Of a DNA stretch of 64,000 nt, positions 2,692 through 63,786 are shown piece by piece. How positions within the stretch are numbered: the stretch's first letter is position 1; the number at the start of each line of letters is the position of its first letter. The notes beneath the pieces are model-generated. The model was given only the letters and a program-made list of their open reading frames with translations, was not told the DNA's origin and did no database searches. Made by a program: the position numbers and the translations under genes. Source of the DNA: a virus; the IMG/VR virus record IMGVR_UViG_3300036853_000446, positions 248,001 to 312,000 of that record; one strand, written 5' to 3'.

Positions 2692-2723
2692 ATCGGTTTC
2701 GCCATCAGCGTGTCGTGAATCTT

Positions 2724-2980
2724 GTCGTGGTCTGGTGGGCTCCACGCAGCCTCTCAAATCTCTCTGCTCGCTGAGGAGGCAGCGCAACAGAACCAACGTC
2801 GTGGTCAGGTGGGCTCCACGCAGCCTCTCAAATGTCCGAGATCGCGACTTTAGGGTATGTAAATTCGTCGTGTCGTGGTCAGGTGGGCTCCACGCAGCCT
2901 CTCAAAGAAGGTGAACCCGTTGCTGTATGCCTTCGCGTCTACGAGTCGTGGTCAGGTGGGCTCCACGCAGCCTCTCAAAG
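2724..2980 (-). CRISPR. CRISPR array 1 (repeat family A), 4 repeats
   Basis: Four 36-base repeats start at 2724, 2798, 2872 and 2945, with three unrelated 37-38 base spacers. Read on the minus strand the repeat begins ATTTGAGAGG, has GCGTGG in the middle and ends CCACGAC; CGTGG and CCACG can pair as a 3' hairpin, as in many type V repeats. The two right-hand repeats have CTTTGAGAGG at this end. The conserved leader lies on the right, so transcription should run right to left. No cas gene adjoins. Confidence 0.9.
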
Positions 2981-3139
2981 ACGTAGCCTCAAAGTTCAGG
3001 CAATATAGGGCATTACGAGGCGGATTGCGAGAGGGTCGATCGTGCTCTGATTTGCCGTCGCGTAACCCTTCGATTTGCTTTGCATGGGCTGATCGAATCA
3101 CGTACTCGCTCGCCAAAGCCCCAAAGGGGCTCGGTCGTC
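2981..3139 (-). promoter_or_regulatory. Leader of CRISPR array 1
   Basis: This stretch is repeated next to arrays 2 and 3 with high similarity, including an invariant core containing AACCCTTCGATTTGC. On the minus strand it has a TATATT -10 box (plus-strand 3002-3007) about 22 bases before the first repeat; the -35 region (TCGCAA, 3025-3030) is weak. The outer end holds a GC-rich hairpin (AAGCCCC/GGGGCT). Confidence 0.8.
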
Positions 3140-3184: not shown

Positions 3185-3745
3185 ATGGCCCAAACCGACA
3201 CCGTTGCCTCTCGGGTCGCCGCGCGTGTGCTCCACGCCATGGCCTATGATCGAAACGAATTCAGGAATAAGCTCGAAGAGCACATCGGTGGGGCTTACCT
3301 CGAGTTCTACAAGGCGCGGCTCGCAAGCAAGAACGGCCAAACCAAGTGGGTCAAGCACTGGCTCACGGAGGTGCGGCAGCTGCTCGATCGAAACCTCGTC
3401 GCCGCCATGCTGCACGAGATCCGCGGGTTCAAAGACCGGCGCAAGGTATATGAGCAGGTTTGTACCGCCATGAAGGCAAAGGACGCGGGCTACCGCCTGG
3501 CGGCTGAGAACACCGTGCTCCGTGACTACGGCCTTCGCAAGGTGCGCATGCTGCTAGACGATCAGGACACGACTAACTTTTGGGCCCTCGTCGAGCAGGC
3601 CGTCGACACCGGACTGGCAGGCAAGGCTGATGTCGAGCTGCAGGCACAACCCCAAGGCAAGCGCGATAAGGGCCGTGGCAAGCCGGAGAAGGGCGACAAC
3701 GGCCGTGGTAAGGGCGACAAGCGGAAGCGAGCGTCCGCTTCATGA
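3185..3745 (+). CDS. Array-associated basic-tailed protein, copy 1
   Basis: 186 residues. The N-terminus has an amphipathic RVAARVLHAMAYDRNEF helix, followed by KLEEHIGGAYLEFYKARL and a helical middle (TEVRQLLDRNL..MLHEIRGF). The last 35 residues are almost all Lys, Arg, Gly, Asp and Gln, ending KRKRASAS, which suggests nucleic-acid binding. About two thirds of its residues match the product of 12708-13229, and both genes begin just beyond a CRISPR leader, divergent from the array. A TATGAT -10-like box lies about 20 bases before the ATG. The family is unknown to me; N-terminal RVA(A/S)R helices also occur in virion proteins of large phages, an alternative reading. Confidence 0.8.
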   Translation: MAQTDTVASRVAARVLHAMAYDRNEFRNKLEEHIGGAYLEFYKARLASKNGQTKWVKHWLTEVRQLLDRNLVAAMLHEIRGFKDRRKVYEQVCTAMKAKDAGYRLAAENTVLRDYGLRKVRMLLDDQDTTNFWALVEQAVDTGLAGKADVELQAQPQGKRDKGRGKPEKGDNGRGKGDKRKRASAS

Positions 3746-11832: not shown

Positions 11833-12521
11833 GTCGTGGTTGGGTGGGCTCCACGCAGCCTCTCAAATGGTATCGAGGAGGACGTCCTTCTCGCTGAACC
11901 GTCGTGGTCTGGTGGGCTCCACGTAGCCTCTCAAATCCACCAGGACGGACAAGCGTCCCGAGTAGTCGGCGTGTCGTGGTTGGGTGGGCTCCACGCAGCC
12001 TCTGAAATCGTCGGGCGAATCGTGTCTCATGCCGACAAGGTACTCGTCGTGGTCGGGTGGGCCCCACGCAGCCTCTCAAATCCGTTGAGAGAAGTAGTGA
12101 CCACTCGGTGTGGGATCTCGTCGTGGTCTGGTGGGCTCCACGCAGCCTCTCAAATTTTTCCTAAGGAGCGAGCCGGCGAACTATCCTCCCCGTCGTGGTC
12201 GGGTGGGCCCCACGCAGCCTCTCAAATCAAGATACCGCTGGTGCGAGACATTGGTGATACGTGGTCGTGGTTAGGTGGGCTCCACGCAGCTTCTCAAAAT
12301 CCATGACGGCGTCAGCGGTTGGTGAGGGTCATCCTCAAGTCGTGGTTGGGTGGGCTCCACGCAGCCTCTCAAATCAGCCGCTCAAATTACGCACCTCGCC
12401 ACGCTGGTTCCGTCGTGGTCAGGTGGGCTCCACGCAGCCTCTCAAATTCTTGTAATCGCCTGCGAGCCGTCCAGCCGCGGGTTGCGTCGTGGTCTGGTGG
12501 GCTCCACGCAGCCGCTCAAAT
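11833..12521 (-). CRISPR. CRISPR array 2 (repeat family A), 10 repeats
   Basis: Ten 36-base repeats (starts 11833, 11901, 11973, 12046, 12120, 12192, 12264, 12339, 12412, 12486) and nine different spacers of 32-39 bases. Same repeat as array 1 with 0-3 changes per copy. Leader on the right at 12522. The spacer at 12375-12411 starts with a 13-base copy of the repeat end (CAGCCGCTCAAAT), a probable slippage duplication. No cas gene adjoins. Confidence 0.92.
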
Positions 12522-12674
12522 TTCGTAGCCTTAAAGTTCAGTCAATATAGGGCATTGCAACGCGGATTGCGAGGGGGTCGTTTATGAGCTGGTTTGCTCG
12601 CGCGTAACCCTTCGATTTGCTTTGCGTCGGTTGATCGAATCACCTTCCCGCTCGCCAAAGCCCCAGAGTCGTCA
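12522..12674 (-). promoter_or_regulatory. Leader of CRISPR array 2
   Basis: Clearly homologous to the leaders at 2981 and 18319. The minus-strand -10 box TATATT lies at 12544-12549 in plus coordinates, 22 bases from the first repeat. The invariant AACCCTTCGATTTGC core is at 12606-12620. Confidence 0.8.
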
Positions 12675-12707: not shown

Positions 12708-13229
12708 ATGACCCAACCCGATACCGTTGTCGCTCGAGTGGCTGCGCGCGTGCTCCGCGCGATGGCTTATGACCGCAACGGCTTCAAGGACAAGCTCGAA
12801 GAACATATCGGCGGGGCCTATCTCGAGTTCTATAAGGCGCGGCTCGCGACCAAAAACAAGCAAACCGAGTGGGTTCAGCATTGGAACACGGAAGTGCGTC
12901 AGCTGCTCGACCGCAATTTGGTCGGTGCCATGCTGCACTCCATTCGTGGCTTTACGGACCGCCGAAAAGCATACGAGCAAGTTCGGACTATGCTTCGAGC
13001 AAGAGACGCCGGCTACCGGAGGGCGGCCGAAACCATCGTGCTCAAAGACTATGGCCTCCGGAAAGTCCGCATTCCTTTGGACGATCAGGATATGGAGGAT
13101 TTCTGGATCCTCGTTGACGAGGCCGCCGAGAACGGTCTAACGGCGGATCCTGATGCTGAAGTCAAGCCGCAAGGCAAGCGGCAAAAGGGAAAGCCCAACA
13201 AGCGGAAGCGAGCATTAGCCACGCCGTGA
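12708..13229 (+). CDS. Array-associated basic-tailed protein, copy 2
   Basis: 173 residues, MTQPDTVVARVAARVLRAMAY..., paralog of the product of 3185-3745. Conserved blocks are KLEEHIGGAYLEFYKARLA, TEVRQLLDRNLV, AMLH.IRGF.DRRK.YEQV and LRKVR..LDDQD. The tail is again Lys/Arg/Gln-rich (KPQGKRQKGKPNKRKRA). It sits at the same place, just beyond a CRISPR leader. Its stop overlaps the GTG of the next gene (GTGA), so the two are coupled. Confidence 0.8.
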   Translation: MTQPDTVVARVAARVLRAMAYDRNGFKDKLEEHIGGAYLEFYKARLATKNKQTEWVQHWNTEVRQLLDRNLVGAMLHSIRGFTDRRKAYEQVRTMLRARDAGYRRAAETIVLKDYGLRKVRIPLDDQDMEDFWILVDEAAENGLTADPDAEVKPQGKRQKGKPNKRKRALATP

Positions 13230-17551: not shown

Positions 17552-18318
17552 TCGTGGTCTGGTAAGGCTCCATACAGCCTCGCGAATAAGTTCACAGCTT
17601 GAAAGGTCAAGGACAGATCGGGTTGTCGTGGTTGGGTGGGCTCCACGCAGCCTCTCAAATCGGTCGCCTTTGACACGGGCATACTCATATCATGCTGCCA
17701 GTCGTGGTTGGGTGGGCTCCACGCAGCCTCTCAAATCCGAGCACCACCGCGTCGCGACGCGGAAGGTAGTGGGGTCGTGGTTGGGTGGGCTCCACGCAGC
17801 CTCTCAAATCGCAAGCCAAGGATGCACGTGCTACGGACGACCGCGTGTCGTGGTTGGGTGGGCTCCACGCAGCCTCTCAAATCAAGCTGGCGGAAGCTGC
17901 CGTTGACCACTCTTCTATCGTCGTGGTCGGGTGGGCTCCACGCAGCCTCTCAAATCTGAACCTCGAGTGGATGCTTAATGGACCGCTCATCGTCGTGGTC
18001 GGGTGGGCTCCACGCAGCCTCTCAAATCCAATGCGCGACGAGGCTCGTCACCTGCGTCGGATTGTCGTGGTTGGGTGGGCTCCACGCAGCCTCTCAAATT
18101 CGCCTCGAAGCAGTCGGCACTCGTATCGGATGCGCACGTCGTGGTCGGGTGGGCTCCACGCAGCCTCTCAAATTCTGCGCCTGCAGGTGCGGGCTACCGA
18201 TCACAGTGGCGTCGTGGTCGGGTGGGCTCCACGCAGCCTCTCAAATCCGTCAAGTCCTCGGCCCCGAGACGGAGGTTGTGCTGTCGTGGTCGGGTGGGCT
18301 CCACGCAGCCTCTCAAAT
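17552..18318 (-). CRISPR. CRISPR array 3 (repeat family A), 11 repeats
   Basis: Repeats start at 17552 (degenerate), 17625, 17701, 17774, 17847, 17920, 17992, 18064, 18138, 18211 and 18283, with ten spacers of 36-40 bases. The leftmost repeat has several changes (AAGG, CATACAGC, CGCGAAT), as expected of the oldest, leader-distal end. The leader is on the right. No cas gene adjoins. Confidence 0.92.
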
Positions 18319-18475
18319 CTGTAGCCATAAAGTCCAGGCAATATAGGGCATTGCAAGGCGGATTGCGAGAGGGTCATTTACGAGCTGGTTTGTTCGCGCG
18401 TAACCCTTCGATTTGCTTTGCGTGAACTATCGAATCACCTTCGCGCTCGCCGAAGCCCAGAGGGGCTTCGGCCGT
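18319..18475 (-). promoter_or_regulatory. Leader of CRISPR array 3
   Basis: Homologous to the leaders at 2981 and 12522; the -10 box TATATT (minus strand) is at 18340-18345. The outer end is a strong hairpin, GCCGAAGCCC paired with GGGCTTCGGC at about 18449-18472. Unlike the other two leaders, no basic-tailed paralog gene follows. Confidence 0.8.
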
Positions 18476-39394: not shown

Positions 39395-39424
39395 CGGATC
39401 AAACGGAAGTGCTTGTTCGTACTC
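39395..39424 (+). promoter_or_regulatory. Shared two-box promoter
   Basis: Box 1 CGGATCAAA (39395-39403), 12 bases, box 2 TTCGTACTC (39416-39424). ATG 5 bases downstream at 39430. Confidence 0.8.
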
Positions 39425-39429
39425 TAGGC

Positions 39430-39735
39430 ATGCGAAACGTCCACGAAGTCCATGGCTGGAAACTCACTCCCGCGATCGGTCGTTCCACCTACGAAGGGAA
39501 GGAGGAAACCATGGCGGTTACCAAGGTCAACTGCGGCCGGGACGGGGACGGTTACCACGTCGAGTCACCGCAAGGCCTGACGTACTTCGTTCAGTTTTGG
39601 GACACGGACCGCAGGTGGACTTCGCAGAAGCTCGTGGGAGAGACCCCGAGCATGTGGCTCGAAAACTCCTCCAAAACGCTCAAGGGCATCCTCGAGACGC
39701 TCCGATTTCTCGCGTGCAAGCGGACTGCCTCGTGA
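39430..39735 (+). CDS. Small unknown protein
   Basis: 101 residues, MRNVHEVHGWKLTPAIGRSTYEGKEETMAVTKVNC..., with strands GDGYHVESPQGLTYFVQFWDT and a final helix. An internal ATG (39511) with GGAGGAAACC upstream is a strong alternative start, which would give 74 residues. Confidence 0.6.
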   Translation: MRNVHEVHGWKLTPAIGRSTYEGKEETMAVTKVNCGRDGDGYHVESPQGLTYFVQFWDTDRRWTSQKLVGETPSMWLENSSKTLKGILETLRFLACKRTAS

Positions 39736-39782
39736 ACGCGCCAGACAGCAACCGCCCGATGACGGATCCGTCAAGGAGAAAC

Positions 39783-40031
39783 ATGACCTTAGAGAAGAGA
39801 GCTGCTGAGGCCCTGCGCAAGGGCGAGTGTCATAAGAAACCCTGTCCATCGAAGGCAAATGCCCTCAAACGAATCGAAAGCGGAAAGGCGGACGCGATGT
39901 CCGTCGACCCATATTCCATGGGCGAGGTGACCCTCATGAATCACTTTGCGATTCGGTTTCACGATCGAACACTCGGCGCGGCGGTTCGCAAGCTGACTCT
40001 TCGCGGCTTCGGACGCGGATCAAACGACTGA
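39783..40031 (+). CDS. Small basic protein
   Basis: 82 residues, MTLEKRAAEALRKGECHKKPCPSKANALKRIESGKADAMSVDPYSMGEVTLMNHFAIRFHD.... GGAG lies 6 bases before the ATG. Two Cys residues (C-x4-C) in a basic context. Runs into the promoter of the next gene. Confidence 0.6.
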   Translation: MTLEKRAAEALRKGECHKKPCPSKANALKRIESGKADAMSVDPYSMGEVTLMNHFAIRFHDRTLGAAVRKLTLRGFGRGSND

Positions 40032-40045
40032 CGTCGCCCGTACTC
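40016..40045 (+). promoter_or_regulatory. Shared two-box promoter
   Basis: Box 1 CGGATCAAA (40016-40024), 12 bases, box 2 CCCGTACTC (40037-40045); exact consensus. ATG 8 bases downstream. It overlaps the end of the preceding gene. Confidence 0.8.
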
Positions 40046-40053
40046 GAAGCACG

Positions 40054-42159: not shown

Positions 42160-43602
42160 ATGGCAAAGAGGAAGTCAAAGACGACGAGTGTCCAGCCCGG
42201 TGAAGTGCTGAAGGGGTTTCGCGTCAAACTCAGACCGACCCAGGAGGATCTGCGTTACCTATCGACGGCTCAAGTCGAGCTGATGACGATGTGGAACATC
42301 CTCGTGATAACGTGGAAGACGCACGTCGATTACTGCGTTCGGCATTGCGAGGACCTCGGGCTCATCGGACCCGTACCGCCACGACCGACCTCGGACCAAG
42401 ACACGAACGTGCCCGAAGAGATCGCCGAATGGGAGGAGTACGCGGCACTCTGCCGTGAACGCCGCCGAAGCGCTCGCGAGCAGTGTAAGACCGTCGAGGG
42501 TCTGACACGGCGCGACTGGGCGAATCGAGCCCTCGATTACCACCAACTTGATCTCACGGAGAAGGCTCGAGAGCAGACGCAGATCGATTACCGCGTCCTG
42601 CGGTCCGCCGTGAAGGGCGTCACGACGGCCCATATGGCCCAGGCCGTCATCGAGACTTACAAGGCGTCATTGCAGAAAGGGCGGCCGCCACCGAAGCTCA
42701 AGAGACGCCCGCTCGAGATGCCTCTCTTGCTTCGCAGCGGTAAGGATTTGCTTACGCTTTCAGCGAACCACTCCACCCGAACGACGGCGTCCGGGAAGAA
42801 GCGGCTCACCGGCTCCCACCACTGCATCGTCAAGTTTGGCCCGCTCAAGATCGGGGGACGATTCAACCGCCCGCCGTCGGGTCCCTTCCTCCAGGGCATT
42901 TCGATCGGGCTCGAGAAGGACGGCTGGTACGCCTCCGCGAAGGTCCGGACCCTACCTGAGGATCTGCCGAAGCCAACGAAGGAAATCATCGCGATCAACC
43001 CGGGACTCGAATGCCTCTACGCCGACAATGAGGGTTATGTGATCGAGAACCCACGGGGCAACGCTTACTCCCTCCGGATGCGCGAGATGAGCGATTGGAT
43101 CGACGACGCCGAAACCCAGTGGGACGAAGCCCACCGTCGCAACCATCAAGCTCGATATGCCGAGCGTTTCGCGCGGCACACGGAGGACCTCATCTACAGC
43201 CGCATCCTCCCGAAGCTCGCCGATTACGAGACGATTCTCATCGGCAAGGCCGGCAAAACCGCCGCTCAAGGTCGACAAAACCGCATCAGTAAGAACGACG
43301 AGGGCGGCTACGTTTCGGCCATGAGCTTGATGCAGCAGCTCATCATCCAGAGGTATGGCCTCTATGACCCCGACGAGAATCCGACGGGGCGAGTGCGAGT
43401 GCTGGAGTCCATGGGAATTTCCCGGAGGTGCTCGCGTTGCGGAACCGAGCACGCAACCCGTTATCAACGCAACAATTTACGCCGGTATGACCAACAGACC
43501 GATTGCCAGGAACCCTCGTGTCGGCTCAAGATACACGTCGATGTTGGCGCCGCTCGCAACCTGCTTTCCAACTATCGGGATTTGCAGGCGGCAGCAGAAT
43601 GA
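42160..43602 (+). CDS. Compact Cas12-like effector, predicted nuclease-dead
   Basis: 480 residues from ATG 42160 (GAGGGG just upstream). The C-terminal half has the type V/TnpB RuvC plan: strand KEIIAINPGLECLYADNEGY (272-293), bridging helices about 310-348, strand DYETILIGKAGK (355-366), a zinc ribbon CSRCG (424-428) with CQEPSC (449-454), and HVDVGAARNLL (459-469). In active Cas12/TnpB these three sites carry Asp, Glu and Asp. Here they read N280, G362 and D461, so two of the three catalytic residues are lost while the fold signatures are kept. The N-terminal half is helical with a FKVKLRPT-like opening (GFRVKLRPTQED) typical of this superfamily. A CRISPR array begins 2 bases after the stop. 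Phage-encoded Cas12 families (CasPhi, Cas-lambda, Cas-mu) and non-cutting Cas12m exist; I cannot place it in one of them. Likely RNA-guided DNA binding that silences target genes. No cas1 or cas2, and no tracrRNA found. Confidence 0.88.
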   Translation: MAKRKSKTTSVQPGEVLKGFRVKLRPTQEDLRYLSTAQVELMTMWNILVITWKTHVDYCVRHCEDLGLIGPVPPRPTSDQDTNVPEEIAEWEEYAALCRERRRSAREQCKTVEGLTRRDWANRALDYHQLDLTEKAREQTQIDYRVLRSAVKGVTTAHMAQAVIETYKASLQKGRPPPKLKRRPLEMPLLLRSGKDLLTLSANHSTRTTASGKKRLTGSHHCIVKFGPLKIGGRFNRPPSGPFLQGISIGLEKDGWYASAKVRTLPEDLPKPTKEIIAINPGLECLYADNEGYVIENPRGNAYSLRMREMSDWIDDAETQWDEAHRRNHQARYAERFARHTEDLIYSRILPKLADYETILIGKAGKTAAQGRQNRISKNDEGGYVSAMSLMQQLIIQRYGLYDPDENPTGRVRVLESMGISRRCSRCGTEHATRYQRNNLRRYDQQTDCQEPSCRLKIHVDVGAARNLLSNYRDLQAAAE

Positions 43603-43604
43603 CC

Positions 43605-44869
43605 CTCAGAACGGCAGCGTGGTGCCTACCCTCCCACGACGAGGAGTTCGGTGGCCGCGCGCGATGATGTGCAAGACCTCAGAACGGCAGCGTGGTGCCT
43701 ACCCTCCCACGACACGAGGTCGGAAAGAGTCTCAATCTCGGCAATCTCACGCTCAGAACGGCAGCGTGGTGCCTACCCTCCCACGACGACCTGCGGAAGA
43801 AGGGCCTTCGCCGATCTACTTGGGCTCAGAACGGCAGCGTGGTGCCTACCCTCCCACGACGAAGTGACGTCTACCAATTGGGCTTGGTCCTCTATCACTC
43901 AGAACGGCAGCGTGGTGCCTACCCTCCCACGACTTATGGGGATGAACCGAGAACCAGCCTCGATCGATGTCTCAGAACGGCAGCGTGGTGCCTACCCTTC
44001 CACGATAGCCGCGTCCTCCAAACTGCCGAATCGATTCCGAAACTCAGAACGGCAGCGTGGTGCCTACCCTCCCACGACGGCATCTCCACTCGTTCCCTCG
44101 TCCTCCGGGTATGGACCTCAGAACGGCAGCGTGGTGCCTACCCTCCCACGACTACGGCTGGCGGTCCCCCGCCAAACGAGGTTGGCGTGCTCAGAACGGC
44201 AGCGTGGTGCCTACCCTCCCACGACGAAACATCACGCGCCTGGGCAACAGCATCAGCGTCGCCATCTCAGAACGGCAGCGTGGTGCCTACCCTCCCACGA
44301 CCAACGACATGACCCCGTGGAACCTGTGAGCTTGCTCGGCGCTCCTCGGAACGGCAGCGTGGTGCCTACCCTCCCACGACGGAAAGACTCGTTCGTGATC
44401 CCGAGTCGACCCCCATGCTCAGAACGGCAGCGTGGTGCCTACCCTTCCACGACGAGGAGTTCGGTGGCCGCGATGGTGATGCGCAAGCCCTCAGCATGGC
44501 AGCGTGGTGCCTACCCCTCCACGACTTCGAGCAACACGTCAACGCGCGTATTGGCTCGTTCAGCCTCAGAGTGGCAGCGCGGTGCCTACCCTTCCGCGAC
44601 ACGTCCCCCAGTTAGCGGAAAGCCTCGGTACTGGTCTCAGAATGGCAGCGTGGTGCCTACCCTTCCACGACCACATCCGTGGATAGAGAGTCCCCCTCCG
44701 GAGTCAACCTCAGAACGGCAGCGTGGTGCCTACCCTTCCACGACTTTCCGATCTCGTTAAAGTAGATGCGGACTTATGGCAGCGTGGTGCCTACCCTTCC
44801 ACGACGTGCACGGGTCTTCTCAAAGAAAGACGCCTCAGAACGGCAGCGTGGTGCCTACCATTCCACGAC
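43605..44869 (+). CRISPR. CRISPR array with Cas12-like gene (repeat family B), 18 repeats
   Basis: Eighteen 36-base repeats start at 43605, 43678, 43752, 43825, 43898, 43971, 44043, 44117, 44190, 44265, 44345, 44418, 44490, 44565, 44635, 44709, 44771 and 44834; 17 spacers, mostly 36-38 bases. The repeat begins CTCAGAACGG and ends CCCACGAC, with GCGTGG able to pair with CCACGC-like ends as a 3' hairpin. Repeats at the right are more degenerate, so the leader end is on the left, at the effector gene. Family A and B repeats match at about 26 of 36 positions, so they share ancestry. Spacers 1 (43641-43677) and 12 (44454-44489) are near-identical. Confidence 0.93.
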
Positions 44870-45975: not shown

Positions 45976-46160
45976 GGTTGAGAGGCTGCGTGGAGCCCAC
46001 CCAACTACGACGGTATCATTCGGCTTTTTATCAGGTCCCCCGATCCGGAGTAACTTGCGAGGCTGCGTGGAGCCCACCCAACTACGATATGCCCGTGCCG
46101 ACGTGGCGCTTCCAAGAAAGGTACATTTGAGAGGCTGCGTGGAGCCCATCACACCACGAC
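45976..46160 (+). CRISPR. Remnant CRISPR array 4 (family A), 3 repeats
   Basis: Repeats at 45976-46011, 46053-46088 and 46125-46160 with spacers of 41 and 36 bases. crRNA orientation is plus, opposite to arrays 1-3. The repeats carry several changes (CTACGAC, CTACGAT, CCCATCACACC), and no leader homologous to the others was seen. Probably an old or inactive array. Confidence 0.85.
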
Positions 46161-46250: not shown

Positions 46251-46286
46251 GATGAAATGGCAGCGTGGTGCCTACCCTTCCACGAC
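46251..46286 (+). repeat. Orphan family B CRISPR repeat
   Basis: A single copy (GATGAAATGGCAGCGTGG..., ending CTTCCACGAC) like the degenerate right-hand repeats of the 43605-44869 array, 1.4 kb away. Its first 8 bases are not conserved. Suggests the array once extended further or was broken by insertion. Confidence 0.8.
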
Positions 46287-58842: not shown

Positions 58843-60420
58843 ATGAAGGCTGCAATCTACGCCCGTGTGTCGTCCGACCAGCAAAGGGAGCGCCACACCA
58901 TCGGCTCGCAGCTCACCGAGCTACCCAAGTACGCAAAAAGCCAAGGCTGGACGGTTGTCCGACTCTACCAAGACGACGGCAAGTCGGGAGAGAGTATCGA
59001 CGGGCGTCCAGAGTTTCAGGCACTTCTCGAGGACGCCGAGAAGAAACTCTTTGAAATTGTCCTCGTCATCGACCTCGACCGCATCACTCGCTCGAAACGT
59101 GATCAGGAGGGGGCTTTCATCTACGACACGTTTCGGTTGCATGGCATCAAGCTGGCGACTCCGAGCAACGGTCTCATCGATCTCGAGAATGAGGACCAGG
59201 ACCTTCAGATCGGTATCCTTCAGGCTTTCGCAAAGTTTGAGAAGCGGAAATTTCTCCGCCGAACGATGCGAGGTAAGTATCAGGCCGCTAAAGACGGGAA
59301 GCGGTATGGTTCGATCGATCCCTACGGGTATCGGTGGGTTATCGACCCGGTCTTGAAGGCGGGGGGCTCGTACCAGATCGTCGAGGACGAAGCTAAAGTC
59401 GTTCGTCGCATCTACAGCCTCGCTCTCGAAGGTCATGGCGTGGCAATGATCGCTTGGATGTTAGAGAATGAGGGTATTCGGACGCGACCACGCGCACCCC
59501 GTGGCACCGAAGGCAAGATCGCCGGTCCTTGGTGGCGCTCGTCTGTGCTGAAGGTTCTGCATTCCGTGACGTACACGGGATCGTTCAAAGTCCTCAAGGG
59601 GAAGGAGAGCGAACCCCTCTCGATCAAGGTCCCGCCTATTGTCACCCGGGCAACCTGGGACGCAGCCCAGAGGGCGCTCACACAGCGCAAGATGTCCTCG
59701 GGCGCTCCGGCACGACACGACCACCTCTTACGCGGATGCGCCTCGTGCGGCGTCTGCGGGTACAAGATGTGGATCGTTACCCCTAGGGCCGGCAAAAGCG
59801 CTGCCTACTACAGATGCTGCACGACCAACGGATGGCGCGGCATGGGCCTCAAGGGCCCATGTGGCAACAAGCACCACCGAGTGGACCGCACGGACCATGA
59901 GGTCCAGACGAAGGTGCTCGAGATTCTGCAAAATCCAAAGCTGCTAGCTCAAGCGTGTTCGTTGCAGGGTGAACCTACGGACGGGGTCGACTGGAAAGGT
60001 CAGCTCCGAGGTCTCGAGCAAAAGCTTGCGATACTGGATGAGGCCGCGTCCGACGCGATGGTCCGTCAGCGTCGGGGAATCATTCCTTCCGCGGTCGCCG
60101 AGAAGGAACTCCTGAACATTGCCCGCGAGCGAAAGCTCGTTGACCGAAACGTCAAACTAGCGCGTGTCAGATCCGGTAAAGCCTCAGCTGAACGCAGCCT
60201 GCGCCAAAATATCGAGGATCAAGCAAAGGCCCTAAGCAGCGGACTCGATCAAGCGGACTTTGAAACGCGACGGAAGATTATCACCCTGCTCCTTCCGAGA
60301 GAGCTGGGCTGCGGTGTCGTCCTGCACCGGGACGGTGGTATCGACATCAAATGGGTCCTGCCACTGCCCGGCGACATCGAGCACGTGGAACTACGCACCG
60401 CCCTCAAAAAAGTTGGGTGA
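58843..60420 (+). CDS. Large serine recombinase
   Basis: 525 residues. The resolvase domain is complete: AIYARVSSDQQ (catalytic Ser about S10), ELPKYAKSQGWTVVRLYQDDGKSGESIDGRPEF, IVLVIDLDRITRSKRD and the E-helix region to about residue 140. A recombinase domain follows (YGSIDPYGYRWVID...VVRRIYSLALEGHGVAMIAWMLENEGIRT), then a zinc ribbon with CASCGVCGYKM...YYRCCTTN...GPCGNKH, then a coiled coil. This is the architecture of phage integrases and transposon excision enzymes that join attP and attB. It may mediate integration or genome rearrangement. attP was not identified; the hairpin at 60495-60542 is a candidate neighbour. Confidence 0.92.
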   Translation: MKAAIYARVSSDQQRERHTIGSQLTELPKYAKSQGWTVVRLYQDDGKSGESIDGRPEFQALLEDAEKKLFEIVLVIDLDRITRSKRDQEGAFIYDTFRLHGIKLATPSNGLIDLENEDQDLQIGILQAFAKFEKRKFLRRTMRGKYQAAKDGKRYGSIDPYGYRWVIDPVLKAGGSYQIVEDEAKVVRRIYSLALEGHGVAMIAWMLENEGIRTRPRAPRGTEGKIAGPWWRSSVLKVLHSVTYTGSFKVLKGKESEPLSIKVPPIVTRATWDAAQRALTQRKMSSGAPARHDHLLRGCASCGVCGYKMWIVTPRAGKSAAYYRCCTTNGWRGMGLKGPCGNKHHRVDRTDHEVQTKVLEILQNPKLLAQACSLQGEPTDGVDWKGQLRGLEQKLAILDEAASDAMVRQRRGIIPSAVAEKELLNIARERKLVDRNVKLARVRSGKASAERSLRQNIEDQAKALSSGLDQADFETRRKIITLLLPRELGCGVVLHRDGGIDIKWVLPLPGDIEHVELRTALKKVG

Positions 60421-63636: not shown

Positions 63637-63786
63637 ATTTCAGAGGCTGCGTGGAGCCCGCCCAACCACGACTCATTCAATCGGCAGAACTTGGTTCAAA
63701 TATGAAGGGCTGCGTGGAGCCCACCCAACCACGACAAGATTCACGACACGCTGTGAGAGGCCGCGTGGAGCCCACCCAACCACGAC
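63637..63786 (+). CRISPR. Remnant CRISPR array 5 (family A), 3 repeats
   Basis: Repeats at 63637-63672, 63700-63735 and 63751-63786, spacers of only 27 and 15 bases. crRNA orientation plus. The second spacer (AAGATTCACGACACG, 63736-63750) plus the next 3 bases match the trailer of array 1 exactly. Repeats show changes (CGCCCAACC, ATGAAGGGC, GAGGCCGCG). Probably decaying. Confidence 0.85.

What the first reader, a model, noticed from the sequence alone, without database searches (positions are those of the whole stretch)
42160..44869. Compact Cas12-like effector with a mutated RuvC site and its own array
Seen: RuvC-I strand reads IIAINPG (N280 where active relatives have Asp), RuvC-II strand reads ILIGKAG (Gly where Glu is expected), RuvC-III keeps D461, and the zinc ribbon is intact. 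A type V-like array starts 2 bases after the stop. Known: some Cas12 proteins (for example Cas12m) bind DNA without cutting, and huge phages encode small Cas12s. Inferred: an RNA-guided DNA-binding silencer carried by a mobile genome, perhaps aimed at competing phages. It may be a new subtype.
Basis: partly seen in the sequence, partly recalled or inferred. Interest (0 to 1): 0.92.

Follow-up and report, generated by a model that had tools for sequence, protein, structure and literature searches.

The report
Phage-carried non-cutting CRISPR-Cas12 silencer

Summary
A 480-aa TnpB/Cas12-fold protein (window 42160-43602) has N280 and G362 where the catalytic Asp and Glu belong, and keeps D461 and the zinc ribbon. 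An 18-repeat CRISPR array starts 2 nt after its stop.

Searches found four related phage effectors (25-30% identical), each with its own array directly downstream. Three keep D-E-D. One (L186) is also dead, as S-E-R. All repeats fold the same crRNA pseudoknot, with compensatory changes, as in Cas12m crRNA. The protein is nevertheless not Cas12m: the Cas12m profile matches two genuine phage Cas12m in the same collection at 1e-84 and 1e-52, but does not list this protein. The family is one clade (100/100) apart from TnpB and Cas12m.

Best reading: an RNA-guided DNA binder that blocks transcription, derived inside a phage-borne type V family by loss of cutting. Dead binding itself is known (Cas12m, TldR, Cas12k). 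Targets are unknown: no spacer matched. In one relative, a lone repeat upstream of the effector carries a guide to its own promoter region, suggesting self-silencing. Whether the family was named elsewhere could not be tested.

The parts
42160..43602 (+). compact type V (TnpB/Cas12-fold) effector gene, 480 aa, predicted nuclease-dead (N280-G362-D461)
42997..42999 (+). codon of N280 at the RuvC-I Asp position
43243..43245 (+). codon of G362 at the RuvC-II Glu position
43429..43521 (+). zinc ribbon C424/C427/C449/C454
43540..43542 (+). codon of retained RuvC-III D461
43605..44869 (+). array B: 18 repeats of 36 nt (CTCAGAACGGCAGCGTGGTGCCTACCCTCCCACGAC), spacers mostly 35-43 nt (two of 25 and 28); crRNA pseudoknot GGCA/TGCC plus CGTGG/CCACG
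45976..46160 (+). array A4: 3 degenerate A-type repeats
46251..46286 (+). lone B-type repeat
2724..2980 (-). array A1: 4 A-type repeats (ATTTGAGAGGCTGCGTGGAGCCCACCCAACCACGAC class), no effector gene recognised beside it
11833..12521 (-). array A2: 10 A-type repeats
17625..18318 (-). array A3: 10 A-type repeats
63637..63786 (+). array A5: 3 degenerate A-type repeats; shares a spacer start with A1
2982..3126 (-). conserved leader-like stretch 5' of array A1
12524..12668 (-). conserved leader-like stretch 5' of array A2
18320..18464 (-). conserved leader-like stretch 5' of array A3

Best explanation
A phage-encoded, single-protein type V CRISPR effector that binds a single crRNA (pseudoknot scaffold plus about 20 nt of guide) from its own arrays and occupies matching DNA without cutting it, blocking transcription there; in effect a natural CRISPRi. 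It descends from a phage-borne family of cutting (D-E-D) effectors by loss of the RuvC Asp and Glu. Shown: gene, arrays, crRNA covariation, lost residues, clade, phage context. Inferred: crRNA loading without tracrRNA, use of the A arrays as well as B, DNA binding, transcription block. Unknown: what it targets.
For: Catalytic D to N and E to G in a well-fixed alignment register. RuvC and zinc-ribbon fold kept at high model confidence; Foldseek to Cas12f, Cas12p, TnpB, Cas12m2 and TranC, all at probability 1.00. Gene intact with coding-like codon-position GC. Repeats near perfect and covarying as an H-type pseudoknot, including a double change CGTGG/CCACG to CGCGG/CCGCG in the window and many in the relatives. 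Relatives show the same gene-then-array layout, and a second member is also dead (L186, S-E-R) while its crRNA pseudoknot stays intact. No anti-repeat of 14 nt or more in the window outside the arrays, against a tracrRNA. The crRNA layout, with a pseudoknot next to ...AC at the 3' end, matches that published for Cas12m2, which binds and silences without cutting (PMC10442227, PMC11013384). In L096 a lone repeat upstream of the effector carries a guide matching its own promoter region for 14 nt from guide nt 1 (0 of 20,000 shuffles), as expected if partial guides silence.
Against: No spacer target was found, so function at DNA is not shown. P0001 sits on a long branch (2.1 changes per column), which could also mean relaxed constraint. 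One metal-binding acid remains (D461). Most array-bearing relatives are D-E-D and presumably cut, so family membership alone does not say 'silencer'.
Confidence: 0.68

Rival explanations
1. Decaying effector: the nuclease was lost by drift and the locus is a relic; the arrays persist only because they are young or neutral.
For: Long branch of P0001; degenerate repeats at the 3' end of array B and in A4/A5.
Against: Intact ORF with coding-like codon-position GC, intact zinc ribbon, most B copies identical to or one or two changes from consensus, and a second dead member (L186) with an intact 478-aa frame and intact crRNA fold.
Confidence: 0.13
2. Decoy or inhibitor: the dead protein soaks up crRNAs or blocks sites of a competing cutting system of host or rival phage, as proposed for a phage-encoded RuvC-dead Cas9 (review PMC11656645).
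For: Precedent in the literature. Solitary repeats with the same pseudoknot sit at gene junctions of other phages without a detected effector, so repeat mimicry around this family may be real.
Against: It has its own arrays with about 40 different spacers, which a pure decoy does not need.
Confidence: 0.08
3. RNA-guided recruiter or activator: the dead protein brings a partner (sigma factor, transposase or other effector) to the target, like Cas12k in CAST or dead Cas12f with a sigma factor (the latter from my own knowledge).
For: Dead type V effectors have been exapted this way (Cas12k in PMC11656645); many neighbouring genes have no known function.
Against: No sigma factor or Tn7-like gene recognised among the window genes tested. 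The serine recombinase at 58843-60420 is 15 kb away, and relatives have only the array directly beside the gene.
Confidence: 0.07
4. The protein still cuts, using D461 and non-canonical residues, or cuts RNA.
For: Some RuvC proteins tolerate unusual triads; D461 is kept.
Against: Two of three metal ligands are gone with no acid at the equivalent places. Cas12m2, with the milder HDD triad, does not cut dsDNA (PMC10442227).
Confidence: 0.04

Closest known systems
Cas12m (type V-M), e.g. Cas12m2 and GoCas12m
   Same: Compact type V effector on mobile DNA; altered RuvC triad; no sign of a tracrRNA; 36-nt repeat whose 3' half is a pseudoknot ending ..AC; expected to silence by binding
   Different: Cas12u1 (V-M) profile not listed for P0001 and only 26 bits for one relative, against 283 and 175 bits for true phage Cas12m L063 and L038. 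Profile-profile comparison aligns only the zinc ribbon, 55 columns. 427-480 aa against about 596. Triad N-G-D is not among those I found published (HEK, HQK, HDD, DED, NED, DND, NDD)
TldR (TnpB-like nuclease-dead repressor), some of them phage-encoded
   Same: TnpB-like size, RuvC inactivation in several lineages, phage carriage, expected RNA-guided repression
   Different: TldR uses a gRNA cassette beside the gene; here guides come from multi-spacer CRISPR arrays with a pseudoknot repeat
TnpB and Cas12f / Cas12n / TranC (small type V neighbourhood)
   Same: Best sequence and fold matches: TnpB 8h1j/8bf8, CnCas12f1 8hr5, RdCas12n 9j09 (full length), LaTranC
   Different: 14-19% identity to TnpB rows; own clade 100/100. 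As far as I know Cas12f, Cas12n and TranC use a second or longer RNA; no anti-repeat was seen here
Phage-encoded type V systems of jumbo phages (CasPhi, CasLambda, Cas14j-like clusters; landfill megaphages PMC12607003)
   Same: Small effector without cas1, several arrays, jumbo phage
   Different: CasPhi and CasLambda only weakly similar. The sequences of the unnamed landfill clusters are not held here, so identity with one of them cannot be excluded

Membership tests
Cas12m / type V-M | full-length match to the V-M (Cas12u1) profile | tested here: not met
   No Cas12u1 line for P0001 even at E <= 1; L048 alone 8e-7, zinc-ribbon end only; positive controls L063 1.5e-84 and L038 7e-52
Cas12m / type V-M | crRNA as pseudoknot with conserved ..AC 3' end, no tracrRNA | tested here: met
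   no anti-repeat of 14 nt or more outside the arrays; Cas12m2 description; phage Cas12m L063 repeat CCCC-ATCGCGGC-GGGG-AAGAA-GCCGCG-AC has the same layout (sequence)
Cas12m / type V-M | REC2 coiled-coil insert and Arg-rich pocket | not tested
   REC region modelled at low confidence (residues 110-150 about 50 pLDDT)
Cas12m / type V-M | binds target DNA without cutting | not testable with these tools
   needs biochemistry
TldR | TnpB-like protein with inactivated RuvC | tested here: met
   TnpB model NF040570 reached by relative L074 (109.5 against cut-off 100) but not by P0001 (23.6)
TldR | single gRNA cassette, no CRISPR array | tested here: not met
   18-repeat array beside the gene; arrays in the relatives
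Cas12f (V-F) | score above the curated cut-off of a Cas12f model | tested here: not met
   Pfam Cas12f1-like_TNB 21.8 against 26.3; NCBIfam Cas12f2 not listed for P0001 and far below its cut-off of 450 for relatives
Cas12f (V-F) | works as a dimer with tracrRNA | not testable with these tools
   no anti-repeat of 14 nt or more found; dimerisation untestable
C2c8 (V-U2) | score above the NCBIfam V_cas_c2c8 cut-off | tested here: not met
   14.2 against 350; relatives 35.9 and 19.8
type V CRISPR effector (general) | RuvC + zinc ribbon (TnpB/Cas12) fold beside a CRISPR array | tested here: met
type V CRISPR effector (general) | RuvC D-E-D nuclease site | tested here: not met
   N280-G362-D461

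The most novel reading that the evidence does not exclude
An unnamed, apparently phage-only type V subtype whose members have shed DNA cutting (twice, or once followed by different further losses) and become multi-guide, self-regulated transcription silencers, while other phages counter it with solitary repeats that mimic its crRNA scaffold.
Probability: 0.3. Interest if true: 0.85.

Novelty: new variant of a known kind. Interest (0 to 1): 0.7.

Why it matters
It would be a natural CRISPRi of 480 aa, smaller than Cas12m (596 aa), running on a short pseudoknot crRNA with apparently no tracrRNA. It sits in a family where dead and live members are close enough to compare directly, so the open question of why type V effectors on mobile elements repeatedly drop cutting while keeping guides becomes testable. 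The possible self-silencing guide and the solitary look-alike repeats in other phages suggest regulation of, and warfare around, this family.

Tried and rejected
Single-sequence searches of the viral, genome, phage and plasmid collections found no relative; at E <= 10 only TnpB and chance hits. Exact searches for the window's own repeats in viral contigs found none, and three hits to a looser form were not arrays. Relatives came only after a degenerate zinc-ribbon DNA pattern and alignment-based scans. Cas12m was my first guess, from the crRNA layout; rejected as membership by profile and profile-profile tests. Spacer targets: none in phages or plasmids, in the contig or in fetched loci beyond short chance matches. 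No Cas1 in the contig. No pair count was made on the joint alignment A7 because MAFFT misaligned the two repeat classes; they were counted apart. Rfam has no family for the solitary pseudoknots. Two full independent losses of the nuclease are favoured by tree and residues but one origin is not rejected (p-AU 0.114).

Full report
WHAT IS THERE. The window is bases 248001-312000 of a 407,634-base IMG/VR virus record. The contig carries phage hallmark genes: terminase large subunit, DNA polymerase, helicase, ribonucleotide reductase and tail-fibre/decoration proteins. The finding sits at 42160-43602 (480 aa), followed after two bases by an 18-repeat array (43605-44869). It is the only TnpB/Cas12-like protein found in the contig, and no Cas1 is present. 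Five further arrays of a sister repeat (A) lie in the same window, three of them (4, 10 and 10 repeats) on the minus strand behind a shared leader-like stretch of about 145 nt that is 81-89% alike. None of these repeats occurs elsewhere in the contig.

THE ACTIVE SITE. Three lines agree that N280, G362 and D461 stand at the RuvC-I Asp, RuvC-II Glu and RuvC-III Asp. (i) In a 40-row alignment the columns are D, E and D in nearly all TnpB rows. (ii) A family profile aligned to solved ISDra2 TnpB puts them on its catalytic residues. (iii) In the AlphaFold2 model (pLDDT 78.5, pTM 0.72; RuvC mostly around 90) N280 follows strand 274-279, G362 ends strand 356-362 and D461 opens helix 460-479. No other acid stands at the equivalent places. 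The fold is Cas12/TnpB without one clear subtype: Cas12f, Cas12p, TnpB, Cas12m2 and TranC all match with probability 1.00 and TM-scores of about 0.4-0.5.

THE FAMILY. Single-sequence searches found nothing. A degenerate zinc-ribbon pattern in viral contigs gave 65 TnpB-like proteins, two of which match P0001 at 7e-25 and 4e-14. Alignment-based scans added two more. The members are L095 (=L074), L094, L096 (=L048) and L186, on contigs of 37, 149, 61 and 30 kb. Each has its own CRISPR array directly 3' of the gene, with about 70-75 nt periodicity in most. L094, L095 and L096 have D-E-D. L186 reads VIGVSMGL and HRRINAARN, i.e. S-E-R, so it is predicted dead too, by different residues. The five form one clade (99 in a quick tree with TnpB and Cas12m; 100/100 in a careful tree with TnpB). 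L186 groups with D-E-D L094 (82/94), which favours two losses, but holding P0001 and L186 together is not rejected (p-AU 0.114). The second hits (E362G in P0001, D to R in L186) differ in any case. No bacterial copy was found in about 1,190 genomes of three phyla, a weak negative.

THE GUIDE RNA. Both window repeats fold the same H-type pseudoknot: B GGCA-G-CGTGG-TGCC-N7-CCACG-AC and A GGCT-G-CGTGG-AGCC-N7-CCACG-AC. The relatives have the same plan with other letters: GGGC-G-TGCAG-GCCC-N6-CTGCA-AC, CGGA-G-TGCAG-TCCG-N4-CTGCA-AC and CGGC-G-TGCAG-GCCG-N4-CTGCA-AC. Pair counts: 98.6% and 98.5% of cells paired against 33-49% and 9-46% when slid, with 6 and 13 two-sided changes, 0 of 500 shuffles as high. 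One degenerate window repeat (44565) changes both sides of a pseudoknot pair (U-A to C-G). Related copies inflate such counts, but the alternation across two repeat classes and several phages is hard to explain otherwise. The plan matches the crRNA described for Cas12m2, with a pseudoknot helix beside A(-2)C(-1) and no tracrRNA (PMC10442227, PMC11013384). No anti-repeat of 14 nt or more was found in the window outside the arrays.

HOW IT PROBABLY WORKS. Inferred chain: an array transcript is cut into single crRNAs; the pseudoknot is held by the effector; the guide's first 17-20 nt pair with target DNA; with two metal ligands lost the DNA is held, not cut; transcription is blocked. Two hints on guide use. 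Array-B spacers 1 and 12 share exactly their first 19 nt and differ beyond, which fits a short working guide but could also be recombination. In relative L096 a lone repeat 20 nt before the effector's ATG carries a guide whose first 14 nt match the opposite strand about 100 nt upstream (0 of 20,000 shuffles). This resembles crRNA-like autorepression described for other CRISPR systems (my own knowledge) and implies silencing by a partial guide; an ordinary inverted repeat is the alternative, though its edge falls exactly at the repeat-guide border. The window's own guides do not target its effector's upstream region.

WHAT IT IS NOT SHOWN TO BE. It is not Cas12m by membership tests: the Cas12u1 profile is absent for P0001 while two genuine phage Cas12m in the same collection score 283 and 175 bits (L063 also matches solved Cas12m at 4e-60), and profile-profile alignment covers the zinc ribbon only. 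It is not a TldR in the strict sense, because its guides come from arrays (TldR description). Published jumbo phages carry several arrays and unnamed small type V clusters (PMC12607003); whether this family is one of them could not be tested.

VERDICT. Observation confirmed; interpretation partly supported. A new variant of a known kind: a phage-borne type V family, distinct from the models held here, containing nuclease-dead members with intact multi-guide arrays.

Noticed in passing
L096:5396-5445 (IMGVR_UViG_3300050004_000011): Lone pseudoknot repeat 20 nt upstream of the effector ATG; its guide TAGACAACGGTGTG matches the opposite strand at L096:5321-5334, i.e. the effector's own promoter region; looks like an autoregulatory guide.
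   Followed up: partly
L266, L267, L269, L270, L272, L273, L274 (single sites listed): Solitary pseudoknot repeats (GGNGTGCAGNCC..CTGCAAC) in other, partly very large phages with no family effector found, several of them at gene junctions among structural genes; candidates for RNA-based anti-CRISPRs (solitary repeat units, PMC10651486). No Rfam match.
   Followed up: partly
window 43641-43677 and 44454-44489: Array-B spacers 1 and 12 share exactly their first 19 nt and are similar beyond; two guides against related targets, or recombination.
   Followed up: partly
window 2706-2723 and 63736-63753: Arrays A1 and A5, about 61 kb apart and in opposite orientation, share an 18-nt spacer start AAGATTCACGACACGCTG.
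   Followed up: no
window 3185-3742 and 12708-13226: Two paralogous genes of unknown function (186 and 173 aa) lie head-to-head with arrays A1 and A2, beyond their shared leader; no Pfam match.
   Followed up: partly
L063:2331-4277 and L038:847-2835: Two phage contigs encode genuine Cas12m with arrays next to the gene; useful controls.
   Followed up: yes
L030, L049, L062, L082, L148 and L209: Other TnpB-like genes within about 0.3 kb of short interspaced repeats; may be array-like or transposon-end repeats.
   Followed up: no
window 39395-40051 and 762, 14485, 16014, 19934, 20225, 30803: Recurrent CGGATCAAAC...CCGTACTC motif of 32-36 nt between genes; possibly a phage promoter or regulator site.
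   Followed up: no
G000 bases 134812-136404; window 58843-60420: The phage contig reads as carrying a GroEL-like chaperonin (recognised by eye, not searched) and a large serine recombinase (Pfam).
   Followed up: no
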